From Bacteroidota bacterium (GTDB lineage: Bacteria; Bacteroidota; Bacteroidia; Bacteroidales; Prolixibacteraceae): a stretch of DNA of 42,927 nt. The notes under the pieces were generated by a model. The model was given only the letters and a program-made list of their open reading frames with translations, ran no database searches and was not told the origin of the DNA. Position 1 is the first letter of the stretch. Every line of letters begins with the position of its first letter. Positions 3,105 through 16,285 of the stretch are shown here, piece by piece. Location: the NCBI GenBank assembly GCA_024278975.1, contig JAJRSD010000088.1, forward strand, positions 1-42,927, given 5' to 3'. Made by a program: the position numbers and the translations under genes.

Positions 3105-4634
3105 ATGCAGGAAAAAATATTAATTCTTGATTTTGGTTCTCAATACACACAATTAATTGGTCGTAAAATTCGCGAGTTAAATGTTTATTGCGAAATCCAT
3201 CCATACAATAATTACCCCGAAATAGATGAGTCTGTAAAAGGAGTTGTACTTTCAGGAAGTCCGTTTTCGGTACGCGATGCCGATGCACCAAAACCCAACC
3301 TTTCGGCGATAAAAGGTAAAATACCTATTTTGGGAGTTTGTTACGGAGCACAATATTTAGCTCATTTTTATGGAGGGGAAGTTGCTCCGTCGGACACGCG
3401 CGAATATGGCAGGGCACACCTTGGATTTATCGAGAGTGAATGTATTTTGTTTAACAATGTTGCTCTTCATTCGCAGGTTTGGATGTCGCACGGAGATACA
3501 ATTGTTACGCTTCCAAAAAATTATAAGGTAATTGCGTCAACAGAAGATGTTGATTATGCCGCTTATAAAATTGATGATGAAAAAACCTGGGCAATCCAGT
3601 GTCATCCCGAAGTTTACCACACCACTGAAGGCAGGCAGCTTTTAGAAAATTTTGTTTCTGAGATTTGTGGATGTCAGCAAAACTGGACCCCCGATTCGTT
3701 TGTGGAAACCACGGTAAACGAATTAAAACAAAAATTAGGAGACGATAAAGTTGTTCTCGGATTATCGGGTGGAGTTGACTCTTCGGTTGCCGGAGTGCTT
3801 TTAAACAGAGCAATTGGAGAAAATCTCACCTGTATTTTTGTGGATAACGGACTTTTGCGAAAAGATGAATTCGAAGAGGTTTTGAAGTCGTATGAAAACA
3901 TGGGGTTAAATGTTATTGGAGTTGATGCAAAGCAAAAATTCTGGGACGATTTAAAAGGAATTAAAGACCCCGAGCAAAAACGAAAAATTATTGGTCGTAA
4001 TTTTATTGAAGTTTTTGATGTTGAAGCACACAAAATTAAGGACGTAAAATGGCTTGCACAAGGTACAATTTACCCCGATGTTATCGAGTCGATATCGGTT
4101 AACGGACCATCAGCAACAATAAAATCGCATCACAATGTTGGTGGACTTCCCGAAAAGATGAACCTTAAAATAGTTGAGCCACTTCGCCTTCTTTTTAAAG
4201 ACGAAGTTCGCCGGGTAGGTAAGGCAATGAATATAAAACAGGAACTTCTTGGTCGCCACCCGTTTCCCGGACCAGGCTTAGGAATCAGGATTTTGGGCGA
4301 CGTAACACCCGAAAAAGTAAGAATGCTGCAAGAAGCCGATGCAGTTTTTGTTAACGGACTAAAAGACTGGGGATTGTACGACAATGTTTGGCAAGCCGGT
4401 GTAATGTTACTGCCGGTTCAGTCGGTTGGAGTTATGGGAGATGAACGAACCTACGAAAGTACCGTGGCACTGCGTGCAGTTGCATCAACCGATGGAATGA
4501 CCGCTGACTGGGTTCATCTGCCGTACGATTTTCTTGCAAAAATGTCAAACGAAATAATAAATAAGGTTCGCGGAATAAATCGTGTAGTTTACGATATCAG
4601 TTCTAAACCACCTGCAACAATAGAGTGGGAATAG
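3105..4634 (+). CDS. guaA: GMP synthase (glutamine-hydrolysing)
   Basis: GuaA converts XMP to GMP using ATP and glutamine, the last step of guanine nucleotide synthesis, in the cytosol. The 509-residue length is normal. The N-terminal class I glutamine amidotransferase domain has the nucleophile Cys79 in GVCYGAQY and the catalytic His in QCHPEV near residue 168. The ATP-pyrophosphatase domain carries the P-loop LSGGVDSSV near residue 220. The C-terminal dimerisation domain has the typical [16 protein letters not shown] and ends in KPPATIEWE. No key residue is missing. It is divergent from the LysM gene and stands alone as a transcription unit. Other long frames inside it are shadows. Confidence 0.98.
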
Positions 4635-4828
4635 TTGTTAGTATTATATGTTTGTCCATAATATCCGATTTCTTCGTTACGCTTGTCCTGAAAACAAATA
4701 TTTACAAGAGGAAACTTATTGTTATTCAGAACTTCGCAAGCCTCGAACTCGAATATTCTGAATCAAACATTAACTTTATTGAGAAACATAAATAAGTATA
4801 AACAAATTGGTAGTTAATTTAAATTAAT

Positions 4829-6442
4829 ATGCAAAAAATAGAAAAAATAGTTTTTAGTTTGCTTTTGGCAATCCTTTTAATTTTTCCGGCTTCGTTAGTT
4901 AAAGCACAAAATTCGGTTCAGCAAAATCAGTTAAAATTTGGCAGACTTTTACGTTTAGTCGATGGATATTATGTTGACTCGGCAAATGTTGAAAAACTAA
5001 CAGAAAAGGCAATTGTTAGTTTACTTTCGGAACTGGATCCTCACTCAACTTATATTTCGAAAGATGAGGTTGATAAAATGAATGAACCACTAAAAGGGAA
5101 CTTCGAGGGAATTGGAATTTCGTTTAATATTTATAAAGACACATTGCTTGTTACAACTACTATTTCGGGTGGTCCATCTGAAAAAGTCGGACTGCGTGCA
5201 GGCGACAGAATTATTGAAGTTAACGACACGTCGATTGCCGGAACCGGACTAAAAAACAGTGATGTTTTCAGATTGCTTCGTGGTAAAAAAGGAACCCGTG
5301 TTGACCTGACTGTCTTGCGGAAACCGGGTAACAATTTACTTGATTTTACAATCATCCGCGATAAAATTCCAATTTTTAGTTTAGATGCTTCGTATATGAT
5401 TGACAAATATACCGGCTACATTAAACTAAATAAATTTGCAGCAACTTCAACCGATGAATTTCTTGCTGCCATGAAAGAGTTGAAAAATGAAAATATTGAA
5501 AATTTAATCTTGGATTTACGCGGAAATACCGGCGGCTACCTGAAAACAGCTATCCAAATTTCAGATCAATTTTTAAACGATAGAGATTTAGTTGTATTTA
5601 CAAACGGAATTAATGAGCCAAAAAGAGAATATAAAGCTACTTCGAAAGGCTCTTTCAAAACAGGTAATCTTGTGGTTTTAATTGATGAAAATTCGGCATC
5701 GGCAAGCGAAATTGTTTCGGGTGCAATTCAGGATTGGGATCGTGGAGTTATAATCGGTCGTCGTTCTTTTGGCAAAGGTTTGGTTCAAAAGCCATTTATG
5801 TTAACCGATGGCTCGGTGGTAAGACTAACAACTGCACATTATTATACTCCAAGCGGACGGTGTATTCAAAAATCGTATACAGACGGCGTAAAAGAGTATC
5901 GTAAAGATTATTTACACCGTGTGGAAAGTGGCGAAATGTTCAGTGCCGACAGTATCCATTTCGACGAATCGCAGAAATACAGTACACTTGTAAATGGACG
6001 GAGCGTTTTTGGCGGCGGCGGAATTATGCCCGATATTTTTATCCCAATGGACACATCTATTCATTATCAATATGTAAACAGATTGCGTAGAAAAACCATA
6101 ATTTACAACTTTGTGCTCGATTATGTTGATAAAAACAGAGACGATTTAAAGAGTAAATATCCTGAATTTGAGAAGTTTGACAAAGACTTCGAAGTTACTA
6201 CCGAAATGATAAACGACATTGTTGCGCGTGGCGAAAAAGAGGATATAGAAAAAGACGAGGAGAGCCTGGCTTTTGCCGAAGACAATATTAAAAAAGAGAT
6301 AAAAGCAATAATTGCCCGCGATATATTTTCGCGAAACGATTTCTATAAAGTGTATTACAAAGACGATGAAGTTATTCTAAAAGCTCTTGAAGTTCTTGAA
6401 AATCAGAAAGAGTACAATAAATTATTACTTCCTGCGGAGTAA
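4829..6442 (+). CDS. S41 family C-terminal processing peptidase
   Basis: This is a 537-residue carboxy-terminal processing protease of the CtpA/Prc type, acting in the periplasm or at the envelope. Residues 1-26 form a signal peptide (hydrophobic core, then VKAQ). A PDZ domain lies at about 85-170, with GIGISF and LRAGDRI motifs. The S41 catalytic core shows LDLRGNTGGYL, the Ser-rich SASASE at about residues 289-294 and the catalytic-type Lys316 in SFGKG, which form the Ser/Lys dyad of the family. The C-terminal 100 residues are charged and helical. The substrate cannot be told from sequence. It has 194 nt of upstream spacer and is followed after 67 nt by pnuC. Confidence 0.95.
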   Translation: MQKIEKIVFSLLLAILLIFPASLVKAQNSVQQNQLKFGRLLRLVDGYYVDSANVEKLTEKAIVSLLSELDPHSTYISKDEVDKMNEPLKGNFEGIGISFNIYKDTLLVTTTISGGPSEKVGLRAGDRIIEVNDTSIAGTGLKNSDVFRLLRGKKGTRVDLTVLRKPGNNLLDFTIIRDKIPIFSLDASYMIDKYTGYIKLNKFAATSTDEFLAAMKELKNENIENLILDLRGNTGGYLKTAIQISDQFLNDRDLVVFTNGINEPKREYKATSKGSFKTGNLVVLIDENSASASEIVSGAIQDWDRGVIIGRRSFGKGLVQKPFMLTDGSVVRLTTAHYYTPSGRCIQKSYTDGVKEYRKDYLHRVESGEMFSADSIHFDESQKYSTLVNGRSVFGGGGIMPDIFIPMDTSIHYQYVNRLRRKTIIYNFVLDYVDKNRDDLKSKYPEFEKFDKDFEVTTEMINDIVARGEKEDIEKDEESLAFAEDNIKKEIKAIIARDIFSRNDFYKVYYKDDEVILKALEVLENQKEYNKLLLPAE

Positions 6443-6509
6443 AAATAGTGTAATTTGTTCTCTTGACTTTTGTGATTTCAATAGAATTTACACTTATTAA
6501 AAAGTAATT

Positions 6510-7109
6510 ATGCAGAGTTTAATTCTGGATTGGCTTGTTAATAACAAAATTGAGCTACTGGGAGCCATTCTTGGCATAGCGTACGTTTTATTTTCCATCA
6601 AACAAAATATATTAACCTGGCCAACCGGACTTGCCACGTCCATTCTTTATATTATTGTTTTTTTTCAAAGTAAGTTTTATGCCGACATGGGTTTACAGGT
6701 TTATTATGTAGGCATAAGTATTTACGGATGGTATTATTGGCTAAAAGGCAAAAAACCTGAAAGTAGCACAGCCGTTCCGGTAAGAGAAACCAGCAAAAAT
6801 TTGTGGGTTAAATTAATAGCAATCGCAATACTTTTATATTTCGTAATATTAATTATTTTGCTGAATTTTACCGATTCGGATGTTCCGTTTATGGATTCGT
6901 TTACCACCGCACTAAGTATAATTGCTACCTGGATGCTGGCAAAAAAACAGATCGAACATTGGCTGATTTGGATTTTTGTAGATCTATTTTCGGCAGGACT
7001 TTATATTTACAAAGAGCTGTGGCCAACCGTAATTTTATTTGCAGTTTATACCGTTATGGCATATTTAGGTTATATTGAATGGAAAAAAGATTTAAAACCA
7101 CAACAGTGA
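6510..7109 (+). CDS. pnuC: Nicotinamide riboside transporter, PnuC family
   Basis: PnuC is an inner-membrane facilitator that lets vitamin B3 nucleosides in; downstream phosphorylation traps them. The 199-residue protein has about seven hydrophobic segments and the family signature region WPTGLATSILYIIVFF followed by FYADMGLQVYYVGISIYGWYYW at about residues 32-75. Its neighbour is a NadR-type kinase whose start lies inside this gene, which supports NR as substrate rather than thiamine (the PnuT relatives are usually linked to thiamine genes and TPP riboswitches, and I see no such riboswitch). Start ATG at 6510. Confidence 0.93.
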   Translation: MQSLILDWLVNNKIELLGAILGIAYVLFSIKQNILTWPTGLATSILYIIVFFQSKFYADMGLQVYYVGISIYGWYYWLKGKKPESSTAVPVRETSKNLWVKLIAIAILLYFVILIILLNFTDSDVPFMDSFTTALSIIATWMLAKKQIEHWLIWIFVDLFSAGLYIYKELWPTVILFAVYTVMAYLGYIEWKKDLKPQQ

Positions 7110-7630
7110 AAACTACACCAAAAATAATAGTTATTACGGGAGCCGAATCTACCGGAAAAAGCACATTAACCGAAACTTTGGCAAAACATTTTAATGTGCC
7201 TTTTATTACTGAAATTGCTCGTGATTATGTCGAACGTCTAAACAAAAAATACGATTATAACGATGTTGAGGAGATTGCAAAAATACAAGTGGAACAATTA
7301 AATCATCTAAAAAATACTAATCACCCATTTATTTTTGTTGATACATGGCTGGTAATCACTAAAATATGGTTTGAAGTTGTTTTTAATAAAATGCCGGATT
7401 GGTTCGATTTGGAAATTCAAAAAAATAAAATTGACCTGTTTTTAGTTTGTGATACAGATTTACCATGGATTGCCGATTCTGTTCGCGAAAATGGAGGAGA
7501 GCAAAGAGAAATCCTTCAGAATAAATACATTGAAACAATTCGGGAATACAATTACAAATATAAAATTGTTAGAGGGGAAGGTGAGAAACGTATTAAAAAT
7601 GCACTCGGCTATCTTAATAATTTGAAATAA
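7079..7630 (+). CDS. NadR-type ribosylnicotinamide kinase (P-loop ATPase)
   Basis: The 183-residue protein matches the C-terminal kinase domain of NadR, which phosphorylates nicotinamide riboside to NMN. The Walker A motif GAESTGKST lies at about residues 21-29, and the family ITEIARDYVE and FVDTWLVITKIW segments follow. The adenylyltransferase domain of full NadR is absent. The ATG at 7079 overlaps pnuC by 31 nt. An alternative GTG at 7106 overlaps the pnuC TGA as GTGA and would give a start closer to the first beta strand, so true start is unsettled. The overlap means translational coupling of transporter and trapping kinase. Confidence 0.88.
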   Translation: MEKRFKTTTVKTTPKIIVITGAESTGKSTLTETLAKHFNVPFITEIARDYVERLNKKYDYNDVEEIAKIQVEQLNHLKNTNHPFIFVDTWLVITKIWFEVVFNKMPDWFDLEIQKNKIDLFLVCDTDLPWIADSVRENGGEQREILQNKYIETIREYNYKYKIVRGEGEKRIKNALGYLNNLK

Positions 7631-7713
7631 ATTATCAATTACAGAGATACTTTGCCTGTTTCTACTAAATATTTCTGATTTGTAATTAGCTTTACACTAT
7701 TAACAAAACAAAA

Positions 7714-8640
7714 ATGACTACAAAAGATTTCGACAGTAAAATGTCAACCACAATTGAGAAACTTAGTAATCCTGCATCATACCAATCTGTTTGTCACGAA
7801 CATAAAATAGGCAAACCATTGCCATCAATTGCCAAGCTCGAAACAGTAATTAATATGGTTCGCGAAATACTATTTCCGGGTTACTTTGGAAATACTTCGT
7901 TACGAAAAAATACTGTACGACATTACATGGGAGTGTATATTGATGAACTTTATGAACTTTTGAGCGACGAGATATTTGCCGGATTGTGTTTTGAATGTTC
8001 CGGTGATGAGGAGAAAAGTTTGGAAATTCACAAGGAAATAGCCAAACAAAAAACTTTAAGTTTTATAGAGTTTCTTCCAGAAATCCGCCGGCAGCTTGTT
8101 ACCGATGTCGATGCAACTTTTTTAAACGACCCCGCTGCCAAAAGTACCGGAGAAATTATTTTTGCATATCCCGGAATTCGTGCGATAACTAATTACCGGA
8201 TGGCACATAAATTATTGCTTTTGGAGGTACCGTTAATTCCAAGGTTTATATCCGAAATGGCTCACAGCGAAACAGGAATAGATATTCATCCGAGGGCACA
8301 AATTGGTGAGCATTTTACCATCGACCACGGAACAGGTGTTGTAATCGGCTCAACTTGTATTTTAGGAAATAATGTAAAAATATATCAGGGAGTTACTTTG
8401 GGAGCTAAAAGTTTTCCGTTAGACGAAAAAGGAAATCCCATAAAAGGAATTCCACGCCACCCGATTGTTGAAGATGACGTTGTTATATATTCAGGCGCTA
8501 CAATTCTTGGCAGGGTTACAATTGGAGAAGGCTCTGTAATTGGCGGAAATGTTTGGGTTACAAATAATCTGCCCGCCAATTCGCGTGTAATCCAGTCGCA
8601 ACCCAAAGATTCTAATTATACCAACGGAGCAGGTATCTAA
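7714..8640 (+). CDS. cysE: Serine O-acetyltransferase
   Basis: This enzyme makes O-acetylserine from serine and acetyl-CoA for cysteine synthesis in the cytosol. The 308-residue product has an N-terminal helical serine acetyltransferase domain and a C-terminal left-handed beta-helix with hexapeptide turns. The catalytic region is typical: DIHPRAQIGEHFTIDHGTG at about residues 190-208, then GNNVKIYQGVTLGA and GSVIGGNVWVT. It is longer than E. coli CysE at the N-terminus, like the EpsC-type proteins common in Bacteroidota. Only 9 nt separate it from the RNA methyltransferase gene, so the two are probably cotranscribed although functionally unrelated. Confidence 0.94.
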   Translation: MTTKDFDSKMSTTIEKLSNPASYQSVCHEHKIGKPLPSIAKLETVINMVREILFPGYFGNTSLRKNTVRHYMGVYIDELYELLSDEIFAGLCFECSGDEEKSLEIHKEIAKQKTLSFIEFLPEIRRQLVTDVDATFLNDPAAKSTGEIIFAYPGIRAITNYRMAHKLLLLEVPLIPRFISEMAHSETGIDIHPRAQIGEHFTIDHGTGVVIGSTCILGNNVKIYQGVTLGAKSFPLDEKGNPIKGIPRHPIVEDDVVIYSGATILGRVTIGEGSVIGGNVWVTNNLPANSRVIQSQPKDSNYTNGAGI

Positions 8641-9874: not shown

Positions 9875-10033
9875 CTATTCATCTTCAAGATCGTAAGCAT
9901 CTATCGGTCTCGATTTTGGCTTTTCGGGTTCTGTACCACCACGGACTTTTAACATTTCGTTTTCACTCAGTAACTCGATACCAAAAACTTTAGAATCTCT
10001 TTTTTTACTTTTAGATGCAAATATACTTCTCAT
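9875..10033 (-). CDS. Small double-glycine leader peptide precursor
   Basis: This 52-residue product has a leader-like basic N-terminus (MRSIFASKSKKRDSK), then FGIELLSENEMLKVRGG, which is the pattern of Bacteroidota double-glycine precursor leaders (LS-x-x-E-M-x-x-(V/I)-x-GG). Cleavage after GG would release a 19-residue acidic, Pro-rich peptide beginning TEPEKP and ending DLEDE. The open frame can be extended to 10069, but the ATG at 10033 gives the canonical leader. The tail has no Cys or Ser/Thr-rich core. No C39 peptidase, LanM or radical-SAM gene is nearby. A promoter element shared with the ECF sigma gene lies 48-75 nt upstream. The neighbours suggest a regulatory or signalling peptide rather than a bacteriocin; this is inference. 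Confidence 0.65.
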   Translation of the reverse strand: MRSIFASKSKKRDSKVFGIELLSENEMLKVRGGTEPEKPKSRPIDAYDLEDE

Positions 10034-10080
10034 AATAAATAACTTAATTGTAAAACATAATAAACACACATTCAGTAATA

Positions 10081-10108
10081 TATTCTGAAAAGGTTAAAAA
10101 GGTAACCC
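10081..10108 (-). promoter_or_regulatory. Candidate ECF promoter of the leader-peptide gene
   Basis: On the minus strand GGGTTACCTTTTTA (10108-10095) is followed after 9 nt by GAATA (10085-10081). The same 14-mer, the same 9-nt gap and the same GAATA stand in front of the ECF sigma gene at 15172-15145. GAATA lies 48-52 nt upstream of the peptide ATG. The layout is that of a -35/-10 pair used by an autoregulated ECF factor. Confidence 0.6.
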
Positions 10109-10164
10109 ATGAATAGGAAAAAAAATGAAATTATACTAAATTGCCTATCCAAAATCAACAGTTA

Positions 10165-11949
10165 ATGGCGAAATCTAAAATAGCTATACTACTAATTTTC
10201 ATGACCTTACAAACATTTTATTCTTTTTCGCAAAATCAGAAATTTTATTCAGATAGTATTCGCGCAAGAGAATTATATAGAAAGGCAATTATTTGTGGCA
10301 TTGATGGAATGCACTTACAAGCTTTAGATACCTTTTTATGTTCTCTTGAAATCCGAAAAAAGATTTATGGTAATCCTCATTATAGTCTCGGTGCTGTCTA
10401 TTCCGGAATAGGGATTCAATATCTGGCTTTGGGTCAGAACGAAAAATCTCTTAAATTCTTATCGCTTGCTGAAGAGAATTATCAATTACGTAAAAATTAC
10501 AAAACTGATCCTCGAATCAGATTGTATAGAAATTTCGGCAATGTTTATAGAAGTAAATTAAATTATAAGGAAGCCTTGCGTTATTATCAGGAATCGTTGA
10601 ATATTTATAGTAAAAAAGTCAACTATTCGGAAGAAGAAATTGCAGAAGCAAACTATTATATTGCAGAGATTTATTACTTAACCAACGAATACGACAAATC
10701 CGTTAAACTGATAAATCAGAATATTGATAATGCGTATGCAGAAGCTAAAATTAGATATTTCGAACTTTTGGCATTTATCTATCAAATTAAGGGTAACATT
10801 ATTGAGGCGAGTAAGAATTATCAGAATGCCATCGACTTAACAATAGACTTTTATGGTGACAAAAGTATTAATGTTGCTATTGAATATTTAAACTACACAT
10901 TATTTCTCCTTGTAAATATTGAATACAAAGAAGCCACGAATACTTTGGAGAAAGCTTATGGAATTATAAAAGTTACCCAACCGGTTTTTGGTAATGAATT
11001 GGCAGATTATTATAATCTCAAAGGTCGGTATTTTAGAAACCTGCCTATTAAAAAACAGGATATAAGATCGTTTTCGGAGGAGAAAAAGAGAAATTTGAAC
11101 AAGGCAATTAATTACTATTCAAAAGCATTGTCGGCAATTAAATTCCCGGTTCCATATTCACTCGATGATATAAATAACTCAGCAAATTGGTTGTCGTTGA
11201 TTGACTGTATTAATTACCTCAAAAGAATTGGAGATACTTATAAAGAGATTGCCAAAGTTGAGCAAAATAAAGAGTCTGAAAATTATATAAAATCATTAAC
11301 AGATGCCATCGATTCATATAAAATAGTTGGCGCATTAATTCAAAAAGCCCGAATGGAATTATCGAGCGACGAAAGCAAAATTCAGCTTACGGAACTCGAA
11401 TATTCAACATTTCAGAATTTAATAGAAACGGCATTTGATGTATATACAGTCACAAATAATACCGAATTTATTGAGCTGGCATTTATAAATGCAGAGCGCA
11501 TAAAAAGCAGTTCTGTTTTCGATAAATTATCAAACGAGTCGGCAATAGAAAATAGTTTAATACCCGATAGTTTAATTCAACTTGAAAGGAGATTTAATAA
11601 CACAATTGCCATCTATTCAGAAAAATTATTTCAAGAAAATAACGAAGATATTCCTGACACCTTCTTATTAGGCGAATATAATACACAAATTTTTGAAGCC
11701 TCCAGGAAACGTGAGGAGCTAAACCGGTATTTAGAGTCGGAATTTAGCGACTATTACGAGTTAAAATATGCAGCTTCGTTACTTTCTATCTCTAAAATTC
11801 AACAAAAATTAAAGTATAGCGAAATAATACTGGAATACGTTTTAAACGAAAAAGACTCTCTCACTGCGTTATACACTTTTGTTATTTCGAAAAATAAAAT
11901 GGATTTAATAAAACAAAATGTTGGTATTGATTTTTTGAAATCTATTTAA
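10165..11949 (+). CDS. TPR part of a split TPR-CHAT protease (N-terminal piece)
   Basis: The frame opens at a TTG (10141), but the ATG at 10165 begins a clean signal peptide (MAKSKIAILLIFMTLQTFYSFSQ would be 23 residues; core ILLIFMTLQTF), so I use it. The mature region is a run of tetratricopeptide repeats over about 400 residues, for example NEKSLKFLSLAEENY, NYKEALRYYQESLNIY and NIIEASKNYQNAID, followed by a helical region. It ends at TAA 11947-11949, directly after FLKSI. The downstream CHAT open frame continues in the same frame three bases later, so one nonsense codon cuts a normally continuous protein. Family members carry TPRs and CHAT in one chain. Either a recent pseudogene, readthrough, a sequencing error, or a two-piece protein. 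Confidence 0.8.
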   Translation: MAKSKIAILLIFMTLQTFYSFSQNQKFYSDSIRARELYRKAIICGIDGMHLQALDTFLCSLEIRKKIYGNPHYSLGAVYSGIGIQYLALGQNEKSLKFLSLAEENYQLRKNYKTDPRIRLYRNFGNVYRSKLNYKEALRYYQESLNIYSKKVNYSEEEIAEANYYIAEIYYLTNEYDKSVKLINQNIDNAYAEAKIRYFELLAFIYQIKGNIIEASKNYQNAIDLTIDFYGDKSINVAIEYLNYTLFLLVNIEYKEATNTLEKAYGIIKVTQPVFGNELADYYNLKGRYFRNLPIKKQDIRSFSEEKKRNLNKAINYYSKALSAIKFPVPYSLDDINNSANWLSLIDCINYLKRIGDTYKEIAKVEQNKESENYIKSLTDAIDSYKIVGALIQKARMELSSDESKIQLTELEYSTFQNLIETAFDVYTVTNNTEFIELAFINAERIKSSSVFDKLSNESAIENSLIPDSLIQLERRFNNTIAIYSEKLFQENNEDIPDTFLLGEYNTQIFEASRKREELNRYLESEFSDYYELKYAASLLSISKIQQKLKYSEIILEYVLNEKDSLTALYTFVISKNKMDLIKQNVGIDFLKSI

Positions 11950-11952
11950 ACG

Positions 11953-13032
11953 ATGTTTCATTTTATGTCTGACAGGGAGTACATTCTTACAACAAATGCG
12001 CAATCGAAACAGTTTTGTGTTTCGGCAAACCAACTTTATAAAAATTTGATTTTACCTTTTTACGACGAAATCAAGAATAAAAAACTGACAATCGTTCCCG
12101 ATGGGAAACTGAGTTACATTGCCTTCGACGGACTTTTACAGAATTTACCGGATACTACCAAAACAATACAATTTAACAAGCTCGATTATCTGATAAAAGA
12201 GTTCAGTATAAATTATTCGAACTCATCAAATTTACTTTTTAAGAAAAACAGATCAACAAAAAAGATAATAAACCGTGCAATTGCATTTGCACCTGAATAT
12301 CAATCGGATACTTTCGAAATTGCAAACCAAAAAATTGTATTAATTCCTCTTCCCGGAGCTCAGAAAGAGGTACTCGAAATTTCGAAAACAATAAACACAA
12401 ATGTATTTAAAGGTTCAGAAGCAACCGAATCTAATTTTAGATCGAACATTGAGAATTATGATATTCTGCATCTGGCAATGCATGCGTATATTAACGATTC
12501 GTTACCGGAATTATCGCGGTTGGCTTTTACTTTTGGCACTTCAGAAAATGCTAATTCTGATGGTTGGTTAAATACGTCGGATATTTATAACCTTAATACA
12601 AATGCCAAACTTACGGTGTTAAGTGCGTGTAATACAGGCAGTGGTCAATTAAAAAAAGGGGAAGGAATTATGAGTCTCGCCCGCGGTTTTTTCTATGCAG
12701 GTTGTCCTTCAATAATAATGTCGTTGTGGGAAGTAGAAGACCAATCGGGCACACAAATTATGGGTTCGTTTTACAAAAATTTAAAAAAGGGCAAAACAAA
12801 GGATGAGTCGCTACGACAAGCAAAATTAGAATATTTAGAGGGGGCTAATTCCAGAAGAGCACATCCTCATTATTGGCTGGGATATGTATGTATTGGCGAT
12901 AATTCGCCTCTTTATAAAAGCTACGATTTCTATTTTTTTAGTCTGCTAATTTTATTATTGATCGGAATTTCTATCGACCAAACTTTAAGAATAAAAAAAG
13001 CCCGTAAAAAACGAGCTTCATTAAATGTGTAA
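11953..13032 (+). CDS. CHAT protease domain with C-terminal membrane anchor (C-terminal piece)
   Basis: CHAT is a caspase-like cysteine protease domain related to separase and often joined to TPRs. This 359-residue piece contains the family motif KLTIVPDGKLSYIAFDGLL, the catalytic His177 in LAMHAY and the catalytic Cys226 in LSACNTGSG, followed by EGIMSLARGFFYAGCPS and SLWEVED. Both catalytic residues are present. A transmembrane helix at about residues 322-342 (FYFFSLLILLLIGI) and a basic tail (IKKARKKRA) end the protein. With the upstream signal peptide the TPR and CHAT parts would face the periplasm. Translated alone from the ATG at 11953 it would lack a signal peptide. The gene is convergent with the anti-sigma-like gene (17 nt between stops). 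Confidence 0.8.
   Translation: MFHFMSDREYILTTNAQSKQFCVSANQLYKNLILPFYDEIKNKKLTIVPDGKLSYIAFDGLLQNLPDTTKTIQFNKLDYLIKEFSINYSNSSNLLFKKNRSTKKIINRAIAFAPEYQSDTFEIANQKIVLIPLPGAQKEVLEISKTINTNVFKGSEATESNFRSNIENYDILHLAMHAYINDSLPELSRLAFTFGTSENANSDGWLNTSDIYNLNTNAKLTVLSACNTGSGQLKKGEGIMSLARGFFYAGCPSIIMSLWEVEDQSGTQIMGSFYKNLKKGKTKDESLRQAKLEYLEGANSRRAHPHYWLGYVCIGDNSPLYKSYDFYFFSLLILLLIGISIDQTLRIKKARKKRASLNV
12993..13018 (-). terminator. Minus-strand terminator inside the 3' end of the CHAT gene
   Basis: On the minus strand AAGCTCGT pairs with ACGGGCTT (one G-U pair) around a T-rich loop and is followed by a T run. It would end the sigma/anti-sigma transcript, and it lies within the last codons of the CHAT frame because the two genes converge. 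Confidence 0.55.
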
Positions 13033-13049
13033 ATATTTTTACATATATG

Positions 13050-14555
13050 TTATTCGGGCATAAATTTCAAGCGTCGTAAAACAGCTTTTGCATCTTGTTT
13101 AAAATATCCATTTCTGTTTATAACCGCCAACAACTCTTGTTTCGCCTGTAATTTATTTCCCAGTTTCATATAACAAAGGCTTCTGTACCATTCTGCCTCC
13201 TCCACAAATAAATTATCGGCATGATTTATTACCAGCGTATAATCAGCAATTGCCTCCTCAAAATTATTCAGTTTCTGCAAACTTGCCCCGGCATAAAACT
13301 GAAATACAGGATTATTACTTGTTGCAACCGGAGCCAATTTCTTCATTTCTACAACTCCCGCATAATCGTCTGTCATAAATGCTCCTTGCGCCTTTTGCAG
13401 CAGCGTTATATCGGCAGACACCGAACGTTCTGCCGACCATGTTGGCGACTCGAAAAACTTATCGTAGGTTTTATCCACAGATAAATATCCACTATTAATA
13501 ACACCACCTACTCCAATTAAAAATAGAACAATGGCAACACTGGTTTGTAAGAATTTATAAAACTTACTATTTGAAATTGGAATCAAATTCCGAACCTTAT
13601 TTACCTCAGCCAATTTCTTGGCATCTTTTAATTCAGCTCGTAATTCCCGAATATCGTTTTCTCCTATGATTTCATTTATTTGACGGCGTAATTCAACTTC
13701 AGCCATTAAATCAGAATTTACTTGTAACTCTGCCTTAAACCCGTCAAGAAGAGAATCATTTAATTCTCCATCAATGAAGTTTTCAATATCATTTTCACTT
13801 ACATTCCACGAAGTTTCAGATTTTATTATCTGCAAAATCTGATTCCTCAAACTAATAATTTCTTTTTCCTTAATCGCTTTTTCAAGTTCATTATGTAATT
13901 GAACTTCTTCTTTTAAATTCCGATTATTGGAGAGCTCCTTTTCAAAATTTACGAGTTCTATTTCAGCTAATTCATAATTTAAAAAATCATCAATTTCTTC
14001 AACCGAAAACTGAGGTTCCATAGATTTTGCAACCTGATTTAAAGTTTGCCTAAAACTAAGAATGTCTTTTTCGAGAATCGCTTCTTCGAGTCCCTCAAAC
14101 TCTTCAAAATCAATATCATTTACATCTTCAGACTCACTATTATTTATAGTCTTATTTTGTTCTTTATAAAACTGGTGAGTATTTTCGTTGATGGTTATTT
14201 CGTGTTGATGCACATGCACTTTAGGCATTGAATCGTATAAATTTATTAAATCTTCCGGAGAGAGTTCTTCATCTATTTCTTGGATATCTGAAAATTTGTT
14301 TAGTAATTCAAAGGAGTCGTTTTTCGAATTTGAGGCTTTGCTTTGGGAGGTAACTTTTTTAAGTTTTTCTTTTAGGGATATTACATCATTTTCAGCAATT
14401 GCTGATTGAACTTCCATTCTAAGTTTTACCTCACCCCTGAGTTCAGCGTCCAACTTTAACTCAGTTTCAAACTGAAGTTTTACATGGTTGCTTAACAGCT
14501 CCTGACAGTAATCTTCAATTTGTTCAAAATAATTAACATTAGGTGTCATCTTCAA
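13050..14555 (-). CDS. Membrane protein with repeated anti-sigma-like segments and C-terminal TPRs
   Basis: The 501-residue protein has no signal peptide. Its N-terminal 315 residues contain a repeated unit of about 65 residues: one copy at about 4-65, one split and degenerate at about 87-177, and clear copies at about 180-245 and 247-312. Each runs roughly I-x-x-(F/Y)-x-x-x-EL, F-x-x-E-L, L-x-x-E-V-x-L, (E/N)-x-x-I/A-x-E-(N/K)-(D/E)-(V/I)-I-x-(L/F). This resembles the short N-terminal anti-sigma modules in Bacteroidota. One transmembrane helix sits at about 333-353, and TPR-like helices fill about 385-501, which would face the periplasm. The start overlaps the end of the ECF sigma gene by 17 nt, the usual sigma/anti-sigma coupling. 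Anti-sigma function is inferred from position and repeats. Confidence 0.75.
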   Translation of the reverse strand: MKMTPNVNYFEQIEDYCQELLSNHVKLQFETELKLDAELRGEVKLRMEVQSAIAENDVISLKEKLKKVTSQSKASNSKNDSFELLNKFSDIQEIDEELSPEDLINLYDSMPKVHVHQHEITINENTHQFYKEQNKTINNSESEDVNDIDFEEFEGLEEAILEKDILSFRQTLNQVAKSMEPQFSVEEIDDFLNYELAEIELVNFEKELSNNRNLKEEVQLHNELEKAIKEKEIISLRNQILQIIKSETSWNVSENDIENFIDGELNDSLLDGFKAELQVNSDLMAEVELRRQINEIIGENDIRELRAELKDAKKLAEVNKVRNLIPISNSKFYKFLQTSVAIVLFLIGVGGVINSGYLSVDKTYDKFFESPTWSAERSVSADITLLQKAQGAFMTDDYAGVVEMKKLAPVATSNNPVFQFYAGASLQKLNNFEEAIADYTLVINHADNLFVEEAEWYRSLCYMKLGNKLQAKQELLAVINRNGYFKQDAKAVLRRLKFMPE

Positions 14556-15126
14556 GTATTTTTTTAAATTCTGTATCTTGTTTTATTCGTTTAATTAAAA
14601 TTTCTTTACACTTATACTTTCTTGTTTTAGCATATTTTTCGCTTTTGTATCCCATTATTTTTGCAATTTCTCTAAGCGAGACTTTTTCAAAAAATAGCTG
14701 CATTAATTTCTGACAATCAGTACTCAGGGTTGCAAAATGCTTTTGATACAAACCATATCTTTCGTTTTTATCAACTAACTCTACCAAATTTTCATCGTAT
14801 AAATTTTCCTGAAATGGTAAAGTCTCATTCAACTTTTTCCTTTCAATTCGTCTTTTTTCTAATTGTTTCAACCAAATAAAACGACAGACCGAAAACAGAT
14901 ATCCTGCAAAAGAACTCTTTTGGAAAACTAAATCGTTTTCCTTTAGCTTACGATAAATTACAATAATGGCTTCCTGAAATACGTCGCTGGCATCATCTTC
15001 ATTTCCCTGATTTTTCTTGACGAAATAACTTATTTTGTAATAGAACTGTTTGTATATGTACTGCAGTATTAAATTATCGTGCCTAAGAACGCCCTTCAGA
15101 ATTTGCTCGTCGCTGTAAACTATCAT
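14539..15126 (-). CDS. ECF-type RNA polymerase sigma factor
   Basis: The 195-residue product fits sigma-70 group 4. Region 2 shows ASDVFQEAIIVIYRKL and the core-binding/-10 region FAGYLFSVCRFIWLKQLEKR at about residues 47-90. Region 4 has LSTDCQKLMQLFFEKVSLREIAKIMGYKSEKYAKTRKYKCKE at about 133-175 (helix-turn-helix for the -35 element). It is the first gene of a two-gene minus-strand unit with the anti-sigma-like gene, overlapping it by 17 nt. The promoter element shared with the leader-peptide gene lies just upstream, which suggests autoregulation. Trigger unknown; the nearby CHAT protease is a candidate activator. Confidence 0.92.
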   Translation of the reverse strand: MIVYSDEQILKGVLRHDNLILQYIYKQFYYKISYFVKKNQGNEDDASDVFQEAIIVIYRKLKENDLVFQKSSFAGYLFSVCRFIWLKQLEKRRIERKKLNETLPFQENLYDENLVELVDKNERYGLYQKHFATLSTDCQKLMQLFFEKVSLREIAKIMGYKSEKYAKTRKYKCKEILIKRIKQDTEFKKILEDDT

Positions 15127-15144
15127 CTTCTTATACTATTATAT

Positions 15145-15172
15145 TATTCGGTTTTTACTAAAAAGGTAACCC
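15145..15172 (-). promoter_or_regulatory. Candidate autoregulated ECF promoter of the sigma gene
   Basis: On the minus strand GGGTTACCTTTTTA (15172-15159), 9 nt, then GAATAATAT (15149-15141). The element matches the one at 10108-10081 in sequence and spacing. GAATA begins 23 nt before the sigma ATG. Confidence 0.6.
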
Positions 15173-15541: not shown

Positions 15542-16285
15542 TTATTGCGCAATAAATGTATAATGAATTGTTCCTTTTTGTGCTTTTGGAGCAGTTAAGT
15601 CTGCATTAAAAACAGTTCGTAAAGCGGCTGCCTTAGCATATAAAAAAGTTTGTTCGTCTCTAATTTTTTTATTTTCCCGAGGAGTTGCTCCGACTACTCT
15701 TCCTTGCTGATTTACAATAATATCGACAACTACCTTGCCGCCACCCTGCGACAAATAAACAGGAATTGGTAAACTCAAATGATAACGATTATCTAAATAA
15801 TATACAATATTACTTTCGCCAACATAAATAACATTTTTAATAGAGTCGGGTGCTATTCCCTCAGTTGTTTCAACCGGCATTTTAATATCATTGATATCTA
15901 CAATCTCTTTCGAAAGTTGACTGCTAACATCGGAAGACAACCGTTTTGCATCTTCTATTTCCTTGAGAAATTCATCATCAAAAAACTCCTCTGCCGAAGT
16001 GGTTGTATTTTCAGAAGCTAACTGATTTGACGCAGCATTTGTGCGAATTGAACTTTCCGAATTATCAACCAATTGTTCTTCTGGAAATTCTTGTTCTTGT
16101 TGCTCCACTTTCTCTTCTAATTCAGGCAAAATATCGGGAAACTCAATTAATAGCGATTCTTCTTTTGTATTTCCTTTCATATCAACATCGGCTAACAAAA
16201 AAAACAGAACCACCAGAATATGGAACGTAATAGTTCCCATAATACCGTAAATATTCTGCTTATATAATTTCCCGATTAACCTCAC
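15542..16285 (-). CDS. TonB-like energy transducer
   Basis: The 247-residue protein has one N-terminal transmembrane helix (about residues 13-33, TITFHILVVLFFLLADV), a charged Glu/Gln-rich linker to about residue 150, and a C-terminal TonB-like domain (about 165-247) with GGGKVVVDIIVNQQGRVVGA and a final GTIHYTFIAQ strand. TonB proteins pass proton-motive energy to outer-membrane transporters. Here the linker is acidic rather than Pro-rich, and no ExbB/ExbD genes are adjacent, so its partner is unknown. It is divergent from the Omp85-like gene with 191 nt between them. Confidence 0.8.
   Translation of the reverse strand: MRLIGKLYKQNIYGIMGTITFHILVVLFFLLADVDMKGNTKEESLLIEFPDILPELEEKVEQQEQEFPEEQLVDNSESSIRTNAASNQLASENTTTSAEEFFDDEFLKEIEDAKRLSSDVSSQLSKEIVDINDIKMPVETTEGIAPDSIKNVIYVGESNIVYYLDNRYHLSLPIPVYLSQGGGKVVVDIIVNQQGRVVGATPRENKKIRDEQTFLYAKAAALRTVFNADLTAPKAQKGTIHYTFIAQ

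What the first reader, a model, noticed from the sequence alone, without database searches (positions are those of the whole stretch)
9875..15172. A CHAT protease, ECF sigma/anti-sigma pair and leader peptide form one candidate signalling module
Four genes share one locus: an exported TPR-CHAT cysteine protease, a membrane protein with repeated anti-sigma-like segments and a periplasmic TPR end, an ECF sigma factor, and a double-glycine peptide gene. Predicted topology puts both TPR parts and the protease on the same side of the membrane. In type III-E CRISPR systems a TPR-CHAT protease cleaves Csx30 and frees an ECF-like sigma factor. Here the same gene types occur without Cas genes. I infer that the CHAT protease may cut the anti-sigma-like protein and so release the sigma factor, with the peptide as output or signal.
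Basis: partly seen in the sequence, partly recalled or inferred. Interest (0 to 1): 0.8.

Follow-up and report, generated by a model that had tools for sequence, protein, structure and literature searches.

The report
Protease–sigma-factor switch controlling leader peptides
In a group of Bacteroidota bacteria, four neighbouring genes (a membrane-anchored caspase-like protease, a membrane anti-sigma-like protein, a sigma factor and small double-glycine peptides) look like one inherited signalling circuit in which the sigma factor switches on itself and the peptides; how the protease triggers it is still a guess.

Summary
The four genes are real and form one conserved module. In 37 genomes of the genus, 30 have both the 501-aa family and a CHAT domain, one the first only, none CHAT only, six neither. 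Relatives carry one intact TPR-CHAT gene; in the window it is split by an in-frame TAA. The regulatory link is in the DNA: an ECF-type promoter, GGGTTACCTTTT-N11-GAAT, precedes the sigma gene and the peptide gene. It has 3 exact copies in the 4.65-Mb genome and 72 in the genus (30 sigma, 29 peptide, 13 elsewhere). The peptides are the surprise: tandem copies behind one promoter have different leaders (45% identity) but nearly identical cores (94%), kept by purifying selection (pS 0.42, pN 0.013). The predicted TPR-CHAT fold resembles Csx29, separase and the anti-sigma factor DdvA. Most likely: a periplasmic, membrane-tethered TPR-CHAT protease inactivates the anti-sigma protein; the freed sigma factor makes more of itself and double-glycine peptides. 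Sigma-to-peptide control is well supported by sequence; protease-to-anti-sigma is inference; peptide feedback is open.

The parts
9875..10033 (-). Double-glycine peptide gene, 52 aa: leader ...LSENEMLKVRGG, 19-residue core TEPEKPKSRPIDAYDLEDE
   Evidence: Ten homologues besides itself, 75-86% identical, RGG invariant; divergent GG-peptide ORF next to CHAT in 24 of 25 genus loci
10082..10108 (-). ECF-type promoter of the peptide gene: GGGTTACCTTTT-N11-GAAT
   Evidence: oriented towards the peptide, not towards CHAT
10165..11949 (+). 5' half of the TPR-CHAT gene: signal-peptide-like start and TPR domain, ends at in-frame TAA
   Evidence: PF13424; complete relatives have one uninterrupted ORF, G035 excepted
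11950..13032 (+). 3' half of the TPR-CHAT gene, same frame: CHAT protease domain (His and Cys present), C-terminal TM and basic tail
   Evidence: PF12770 189.3 bits; His and Cys conserved in 49 of 49 relatives reaching those columns; TM 324-348 of this part
13050..14555 (-). Membrane anti-sigma-like protein, 501 aa (ATG 14549 gives 499): three helical bundles, TM, periplasmic TPR
14539..15126 (-). ECF sigma factor, 195 aa; its end overlaps the start of the anti-sigma-like gene
   Evidence: TIGR02937 over its cut-off; mean pairwise identity 87% over 25 loci
15146..15172 (-). ECF-type promoter of the sigma/anti-sigma operon

Best explanation
A trans-envelope signalling module. The 501-aa protein holds the ECF sigma factor in the cytoplasm with its repeated N-terminal helical segments and carries a TPR domain into the periplasm through one TM helix. 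The TPR-CHAT cysteine protease is exported and tethered to the same membrane by its C-terminal TM, so it faces that TPR domain. On a signal sensed by its fast-evolving TPR superhelix, CHAT cuts the anti-sigma-like protein on the periplasmic side (candidate place: the conserved juxtamembrane stretch YDxYFExPxWSPERS), general proteases such as RseP finish the job, and the sigma factor is freed. It then transcribes its own operon and the divergent double-glycine peptide gene(s) from GGGTTACCTTTT-N11-GAAT promoters; the peptides are exported by an unlinked C39 transporter. Well supported by sequence: the module, the topology, the promoter shared by sigma and peptide. Inferred: that this sigma factor uses that promoter (the usual autoregulation argument), sigma binding, the cut, export. 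In this strain the TPR-CHAT gene is interrupted, so its circuit may be stuck, or the interruption may be an assembly error.
Against: No cleavage, binding or expression data. CHAT is not under the promoter and, in the genus, is convergent with the sigma operon. In L083 and L085 CHAT keeps the peptide and the 501-aa gene but no sigma gene was found in the 15.5 kb fetched. In other families of the order 7 of 40 genomes have CHAT without the 501-aa family and 2 the reverse. In a sample of 40 CHAT loci across the class only 4 have both sigma and anti-sigma-like neighbours. Six family genomes have the 501-aa family but no exact promoter. The window's own anti-sigma-like protein has no anti-sigma family match. 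The window's own protease gene is broken. The AlphaFold model of the 501-aa protein is mediocre (pLDDT 67.5).
Confidence: 0.5

Rival explanations
1. The peptide and the protease are the cognate pair: CHAT processes, destroys or is blocked by the peptide, and the anti-sigma protein is released by other proteases. The sigma factor merely supplies peptide.
For: A divergent peptide gene lies beside CHAT in 24 of 25 genus and 11 of 11 other family loci, also in L083 and L085 where no sigma gene was found; cores carry basic residues (KSR, RDK) of a kind that caspase-like proteases can cut (inference).
Against: CHAT and the 501-aa family also co-occur (no CHAT-only genome among 61 in genus and family); in other families of the order only 2 of 7 CHAT loci have such a divergent peptide ORF.
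Confidence: 0.2
2. TPR-CHAT is a sensor partner that acts by binding, not cutting, as the CHAT-like part of the one-piece anti-sigma factor DdvA may do.
For: DdvA (8rw5, 8rot) is called a transmembrane anti-sigma factor in its PDB titles and aligns over model residues 43-915, TPR and CHAT both.
Confidence: 0.15
3. The peptide is an antibacterial (microcin-like) product and the module is an attack or envelope-stress regulon.
For: Double-glycine leaders are typical of bacteriocins as well as of signals (recalled); several gene copies raise dosage.
Against: In the window no other ORF of 50 aa or more lies between RlmL and TPR-CHAT, so no immunity or modification gene is next to the peptide; elsewhere I did not search for such genes. 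Most cores are short, acidic and hydrophilic; identical cores from different leaders fit a specific ligand at least as well.
Confidence: 0.15

Closest known systems
Myxococcus xanthus DdvS/DdvA (ECF sigma and transmembrane anti-sigma factor; PDB 8rw5, 8rot)
   Different: There the two functions are in one chain; here anti-sigma-like protein and TPR-CHAT are two membrane proteins with a divergent peptide gene. DdvS controls a CBASS/type III-B CRISPR island (PMC12288465, passage); I recognised no such target among the promoter sites read, but the downstream genes were not domain-searched. The structure paper (Sci Adv adp1053) was not held; only its title was seen
Type III-E CRISPR Craspase: TPR-CHAT Csx29, Csx30, CASP-sigma (PMC10028731, passages)
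   Different: Craspase is RNA-guided; here the protease is predicted exported and membrane-anchored, the inhibitor spans the membrane, and no Cas gene was found among the genes scanned
ECF group 54 (PMC8999054, passages)
   Same: CHAT, subtilase or carboxypeptidase genes beside an ECF sigma gene; proteolytic control proposed
   Different: Listed as acting without an anti-sigma factor; example from Geodermatophilus. Group membership of the window's sigma was not tested
RseA/DegS/RseP-type regulated proteolysis (recalled; also cited in a passage of PMC10028731)
   Same: Periplasmic trigger, membrane anti-sigma, ECF sigma autoregulation
   Different: A caspase-like CHAT would replace DegS as first protease; a peptide regulon replaces the stress regulon
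Double-glycine peptide / C39 transporter systems (microcins, ComC-type pheromones; recalled)
   Same: Leader ending in GG; C39 peptidase transporters present
   Different: No transporter linked in the window's genome; several precursors with different leaders give the same core; apparently controlled by an ECF sigma

Membership tests
ECF sigma / membrane anti-sigma pair | ECF sigma domains | tested here: met
   TIGR02937 49.6 bits, cut-off 42.9
ECF sigma / membrane anti-sigma pair | Anti-sigma domain on the cytoplasmic side of one TM helix, gene adjoining sigma | tested here: inconclusive
   Topology and overlapping genes met; the domain only by sub-threshold matches, 8 of 10 short relatives in the N-terminal part; no anti-sigma family match for the window's own protein
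ECF sigma / membrane anti-sigma pair | Autoregulated two-block promoter | tested here: met
   Sequence level only: promoter before sigma at 30 of 72 genus hits; transcription not tested
ECF sigma / membrane anti-sigma pair | Anti-sigma protein binds and inhibits the sigma factor | not testable with these tools
   Needs co-expression or pull-down
CHAT proteases (PF12770) | CHAT domain with His/Cys dyad | tested here: met
   189.3 bits; dyad 49 of 49 relatives
CHAT proteases (PF12770) | Intact gene in the window | tested here: not met
   In-frame TAA 11947-11949; one ORF in complete relatives except G035
Type III-E Craspase | Association with a Cas7-11 (gRAMP) gene | tested here: not met
   None among the 10 locus and neighbour proteins scanned with Pfam and NCBIfam; PADLOC: no Cas match for the locus proteins. 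The rest of the window was not scanned for Cas
Type III-E Craspase | Cytoplasmic TPR-CHAT | tested here: not met
   C-terminal hydrophobic segment in 37 of 37 and N-terminal one in 27 of 37 full-length relatives (hydropathy)
Type III-E Craspase | TPR-CHAT fold of Csx29 | tested here: met
DdvA-type anti-sigma factor | Anti-sigma, TM and TPR-CHAT-like part in one polypeptide | tested here: not met
   Two separate ORFs in the window and in the relatives where both were mapped
DdvA-type anti-sigma factor | Fold of the TPR/caspase-like part | tested here: met
ECF54 | CHAT gene beside an ECF sigma without anti-sigma factor | tested here: inconclusive
   CHAT is near, but an anti-sigma-like gene adjoins sigma; whether it is a true anti-sigma factor is open, and ECF group assignment was not tested
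Double-glycine exported peptide | GG-ending leader and short core | tested here: met
   no Pfam or NCBIfam family matches the window's peptide
Double-glycine exported peptide | C39 transporter | tested here: met
   In 36 of 37 genus genomes, two in the window's genome, on other contigs; it also occurs in genomes without the promoter
Double-glycine exported peptide | Secretion of the core | not testable with these tools
   Needs mass spectrometry of supernatant

The most novel reading that the evidence does not exclude
A peptide-pheromone circuit run by an ECF sigma factor: the double-glycine cores are the ligand of the periplasmic TPR-CHAT protease (or of the anti-sigma TPR domain), so that secreted peptide makes CHAT cut the anti-sigma protein and the freed sigma factor makes more peptide, a positive, species-specific autoinduction loop. 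It explains why three precursors with different leaders encode the same core, why the cores change together in each lineage, and why the peptide gene stays beside CHAT.
Probability: 0.25. Interest if true: 0.92.

Novelty: new variant of a known kind. Interest (0 to 1): 0.76.

Why it matters
CHAT proteases are known from separase-like and CRISPR settings, where they cut a defined partner; a membrane-anchored, exported form wired to an anti-sigma factor would extend caspase-like proteolysis to ordinary trans-envelope signalling in Bacteroidota. One paper found class I anti-sigma domains beside only 6% of Bacteroidetes ECF factors (PMC7406223, passage), so a repeated, diverged anti-sigma-like membrane family would help fill that gap. 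The promoter word makes the regulon readable in any genome, and the identical-core peptides make a secreted-signal hypothesis directly testable with one synthetic peptide.

Tried and rejected
Receptor by co-evolution: distances of peptide cores against regions of TPR-CHAT, the 501-aa protein and sigma, controlled for RlmL and (except for sigma itself) sigma, over 25 of 36 loci (those with complete genes): partial r 0.40-0.54 for each of five regions (none of 2000 permutations as high), 0.11 (p 0.21) for sigma. All regions score alike, so no receptor is named.

Peptide as mimic of a partner's segment: best local match of cores to the 501-aa protein, TPR-CHAT, sigma and RlmL against shuffled cores: mean z -0.40, -0.35, 0.23, -0.53; rejected.

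TPR carboxylate clamp for the acidic core ends: Foldseek lists clamp TPRs bound to EEVD peptides for the 501-aa model, but ordinary TPRs score as well and I saw no canonical clamp residues by eye; dropped.

Defence system: no PADLOC match except a weak one to GajB (13.9 bits, E 0.0038). Known RNA: three Rfam matches in the loci of the short-transcript sites, all under their gathering scores; one (PhrS, 23.4 bits against 37, E 0.09) covers the site in L151. The second look at the 501-aa model lists only TPR-type chains in its 50 rows and tests residues 377-499 alone; no anti-sigma fold is listed, which excludes nothing. Solved structures by sequence: none for sigma; for the 501-aa profile mainly TPR proteins, plus MacB at E 0.015; for the intact relative two designed TPR proteins; for the TPR-CHAT profile TPR proteins in the 60 rows shown of 265 (repeated at a stricter threshold); for the window's CHAT half nothing under E 0.07.

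Chance neighbourhood: rejected. Recent duplication or gene conversion as sole cause of identical cores: 26 pairs identical over the compared core (up to 16 residues), none without synonymous differences; short conversion tracts are not excluded. The permutation ignores relatedness, and L065 and L067 are near-copies. A RiPP-mining paper on Bacteroidales (PMC10352776, passages) has no occurrence of 'sigma' or 'double-glycine'.
Full report
WHAT IS THERE. The window is one contig of a 4.65-Mb genome. Named relatives of its 501-aa protein are Draconibacterium, Maribellus and Mariniphaga, and a TPR-CHAT relative is named Prolixibacteraceae, so it is probably of that family. From left to right: a 52-aa double-glycine peptide gene (9875-10033, -), a TPR-CHAT gene on the other strand (10165-13032) interrupted in frame by TAA 11947-11949, a 501-aa membrane protein (13050-14555, -) and an ECF sigma factor (14539-15126, -) whose end overlaps the start of the 501-aa gene. 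Domains: PF12770 CHAT 189.3 bits, TPR_12 80.8 bits, sigma70-ECF 49.6 bits over a cut-off of 42.9. It is the only CHAT found in the genome.

CONSERVATION. The 501-aa family was found in 66 of 101 genomes, the window's own included, and CHAT in 68 of the same 101. In the genus (37 genomes) 30 have both, one only the first (G016, at a contig end), none only CHAT, six neither. In other genera of the family (24): 17, 2, 0, 5. In other families of the order (40): 14, 2, 7, 17. Of the 30 genus genomes with both, 29 have them on one contig, at most 951 nt apart; in G020 they lie on different contigs. The order RlmL - peptide - TPR-CHAT - 501-aa - sigma recurs in the genus loci that are complete enough to show it. 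Complete relatives have TPR-CHAT as a single ORF, mostly 940-990 aa, except G035, where it is split too. Across the class I looked at 40 CHAT loci, one each from 40 of the 51 genomes with a match: 4 have both sigma and anti-sigma-like neighbours (L254, L267, L268, L272), and all 4 CHATs have a C-terminal TM, against 8 of 40 overall (hydropathy scan; Fisher p 0.0008). Three more (L250, L260, L274) have a sigma-like ORF only and two (L247, L264) a weak anti-like ORF only.

TOPOLOGY. Of full-length TPR-CHATs in genus and family (at least 850 aa, n = 37), 37 have a C-terminal hydrophobic segment, 36 a basic tail, 27 an N-terminal hydrophobic segment at the threshold used, 1 a middle one. Of 45 long members of the 501-aa family, 43 have one TM, two none at that threshold, and in 41 the N side is more basic. 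So protease and both TPR parts should face the periplasm and the helical segments the cytoplasm. His and Cys of the CHAT dyad are present in 49 of 49 sequences that reach those columns (a fiftieth is a fragment). AlphaFold gives a good TPR-CHAT model for an intact relative (L035; pLDDT 82.9) and a mediocre one for the 501-aa protein (67.5): helices grouped at 7-70, 183-245 and 252-320, TM 328-352, TPR from about 378. Ten short relatives with one such group (L095 from the same family, the others from further away) were scanned: 9 match the NCBI anti-sigma model NF052375 (E 6e-6 to 0.06), 8 of these in the N-terminal part (that of L099 lies elsewhere), and 3 match zf-HC2, all under the curated cut-offs. 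This is suggestive, not proof.

THE PROMOTER. A 14-base word occurs twice in the window, before sigma and before the peptide (0 of 100 shuffles reach two, one mismatch allowed). Alignment of relatives shows a two-block promoter, GGGTTACCTTTT-N11-GAAT, mostly 38-42 nt before the sigma start and about 75 nt before most peptide starts. Of 72 upstream words in loci L042-L101, 66 have GAAT exactly 11 nt on. Genome-wide there are 3 exact sites in the window's genome (16 with up to two mismatches, against 7 for the reversed pattern, so inexact sites are mostly background). The genus search gave 72 exact hits in 32 of 37 genomes, all with N11 although N10-12 was allowed, and one hit of the reversed control. 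A recount against mapped genes puts 29 before sigma, 26 on the CHAT/peptide side and 17 elsewhere. Reading those 17 shows one more sigma start and three more peptides, on contigs apart from the mapped locus, so 30, 29 and 13. In the family 66 of 120 genomes have it, with three control hits. Over 61 genus and family genomes: promoter with 501-aa family 44, family only 6, promoter only 1 (G015, 70% complete), neither 10. In the window and the genus loci read, the promoter reads towards the peptide, not towards CHAT. Of 20 off-locus sites fetched from other genera, four precede double-glycine peptides (L191, L194, L197, L204) and two (L192, L195) stand upstream of genes that look like the 501-aa family by eye; the other 14 have no target I could name.

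THE PEPTIDES. A divergent double-glycine ORF lies within 1 kb of the CHAT start in 24 of 25 genus loci (the exception, L057, has a peptide match by another search), 11 of 11 loci of other genera and 2 of 7 in other families (loci with at least 300 nt upstream; 43 of 50 CHAT loci used); the same scan at the CHAT 3' end finds 0 of 43. The background is 5 such ORFs in 564 kb. Among 36 promoter-linked peptide loci 15 have three precursors. Within a locus cores are 94% identical and leaders 45% (45 pairs, core higher in 44); between loci 41% and 44% (630 pairs). In 43 of those pairs (two dropped for under 80% core identity) the cores differ at 42% of synonymous sites and 1.3% of nonsynonymous sites; the last 12 leader codons at 54% and 27%. 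In 14 three-copy loci the F/Y position agrees within the locus in 14 of 14 (permuted mean 5.4, largest 12; relatedness ignored). The core is thus the selected unit and changes as a set in each lineage, as expected for a ligand with a matching receptor. In L079 the two cores are alike again but quite unlike those of the genus.

MECHANISM. Shown by sequence: module, predicted topology, promoter shared by sigma and peptide, selected core. Inferred: that this sigma factor reads that promoter, sigma held by the N-terminal bundles, CHAT cutting the periplasmic side (the stretch YDxYFExPxWSPERS just outside the TM is strongly conserved), completion by RseP (one M50 protease in the genome), export by a C39 transporter (36 of 37 genus genomes). 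Sequence conservation fits a sensor-output layout: mean identity is 87% for sigma, 65% for the CHAT domain, 38-46% for the TPR part and 68% for RlmL as a housekeeping yardstick (25 loci). The window's own circuit has a broken protease gene, real or by error.

VERDICT. Control of the peptide by the sigma factor is now well supported at sequence level; the cut is not tested. The most novel reading is a pheromone loop (probability 0.25).

Noticed in passing
Genome C98:26773-26799 (-), locus L147 position 6800; also L148, L149, L151, L155: The third exact promoter site of the window's genome reads into a short conserved stretch (about 100 nt, with a terminator-like end), apparently convergent to the 3' end of an argS-like gene (by-eye reading): a candidate small RNA of this sigma factor.
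   Followed up: partly
L150, L156, L157, L158, L159, L161: At six genus sites the same promoter precedes a gene for an unknown family of about 122 aa (AKLIHQTYASYLPTAFPAHYYGMPNGKI...); two members tested had no Pfam match over its cut-off.
   Followed up: partly
L072 (G035): 4349-5908 and 5892-6941; 501-aa homologue 6978-8327: A second genus genome with a split TPR-CHAT gene; its 501-aa homologue lacks about residues 290-343, just before and at the TM.
   Followed up: no
L079: 638-742 and 807-908: Two double-glycine ORFs upstream of CHAT with similar cores QVGTVLAPGGTILQ and QYGTVIAPGGTILQ, unlike the acidic cores of the genus.
   Followed up: no
Genomes G086, G076, G176, G214, G254, G260: Twelve to 20 CHAT matches in one genome, against at most two in the genus genomes searched.
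   Followed up: no
window 15542-16285 (-): Gene upstream of sigma, kept at that place in many genus loci; only a weak TonB C-terminal match (E 0.21).
   Followed up: no
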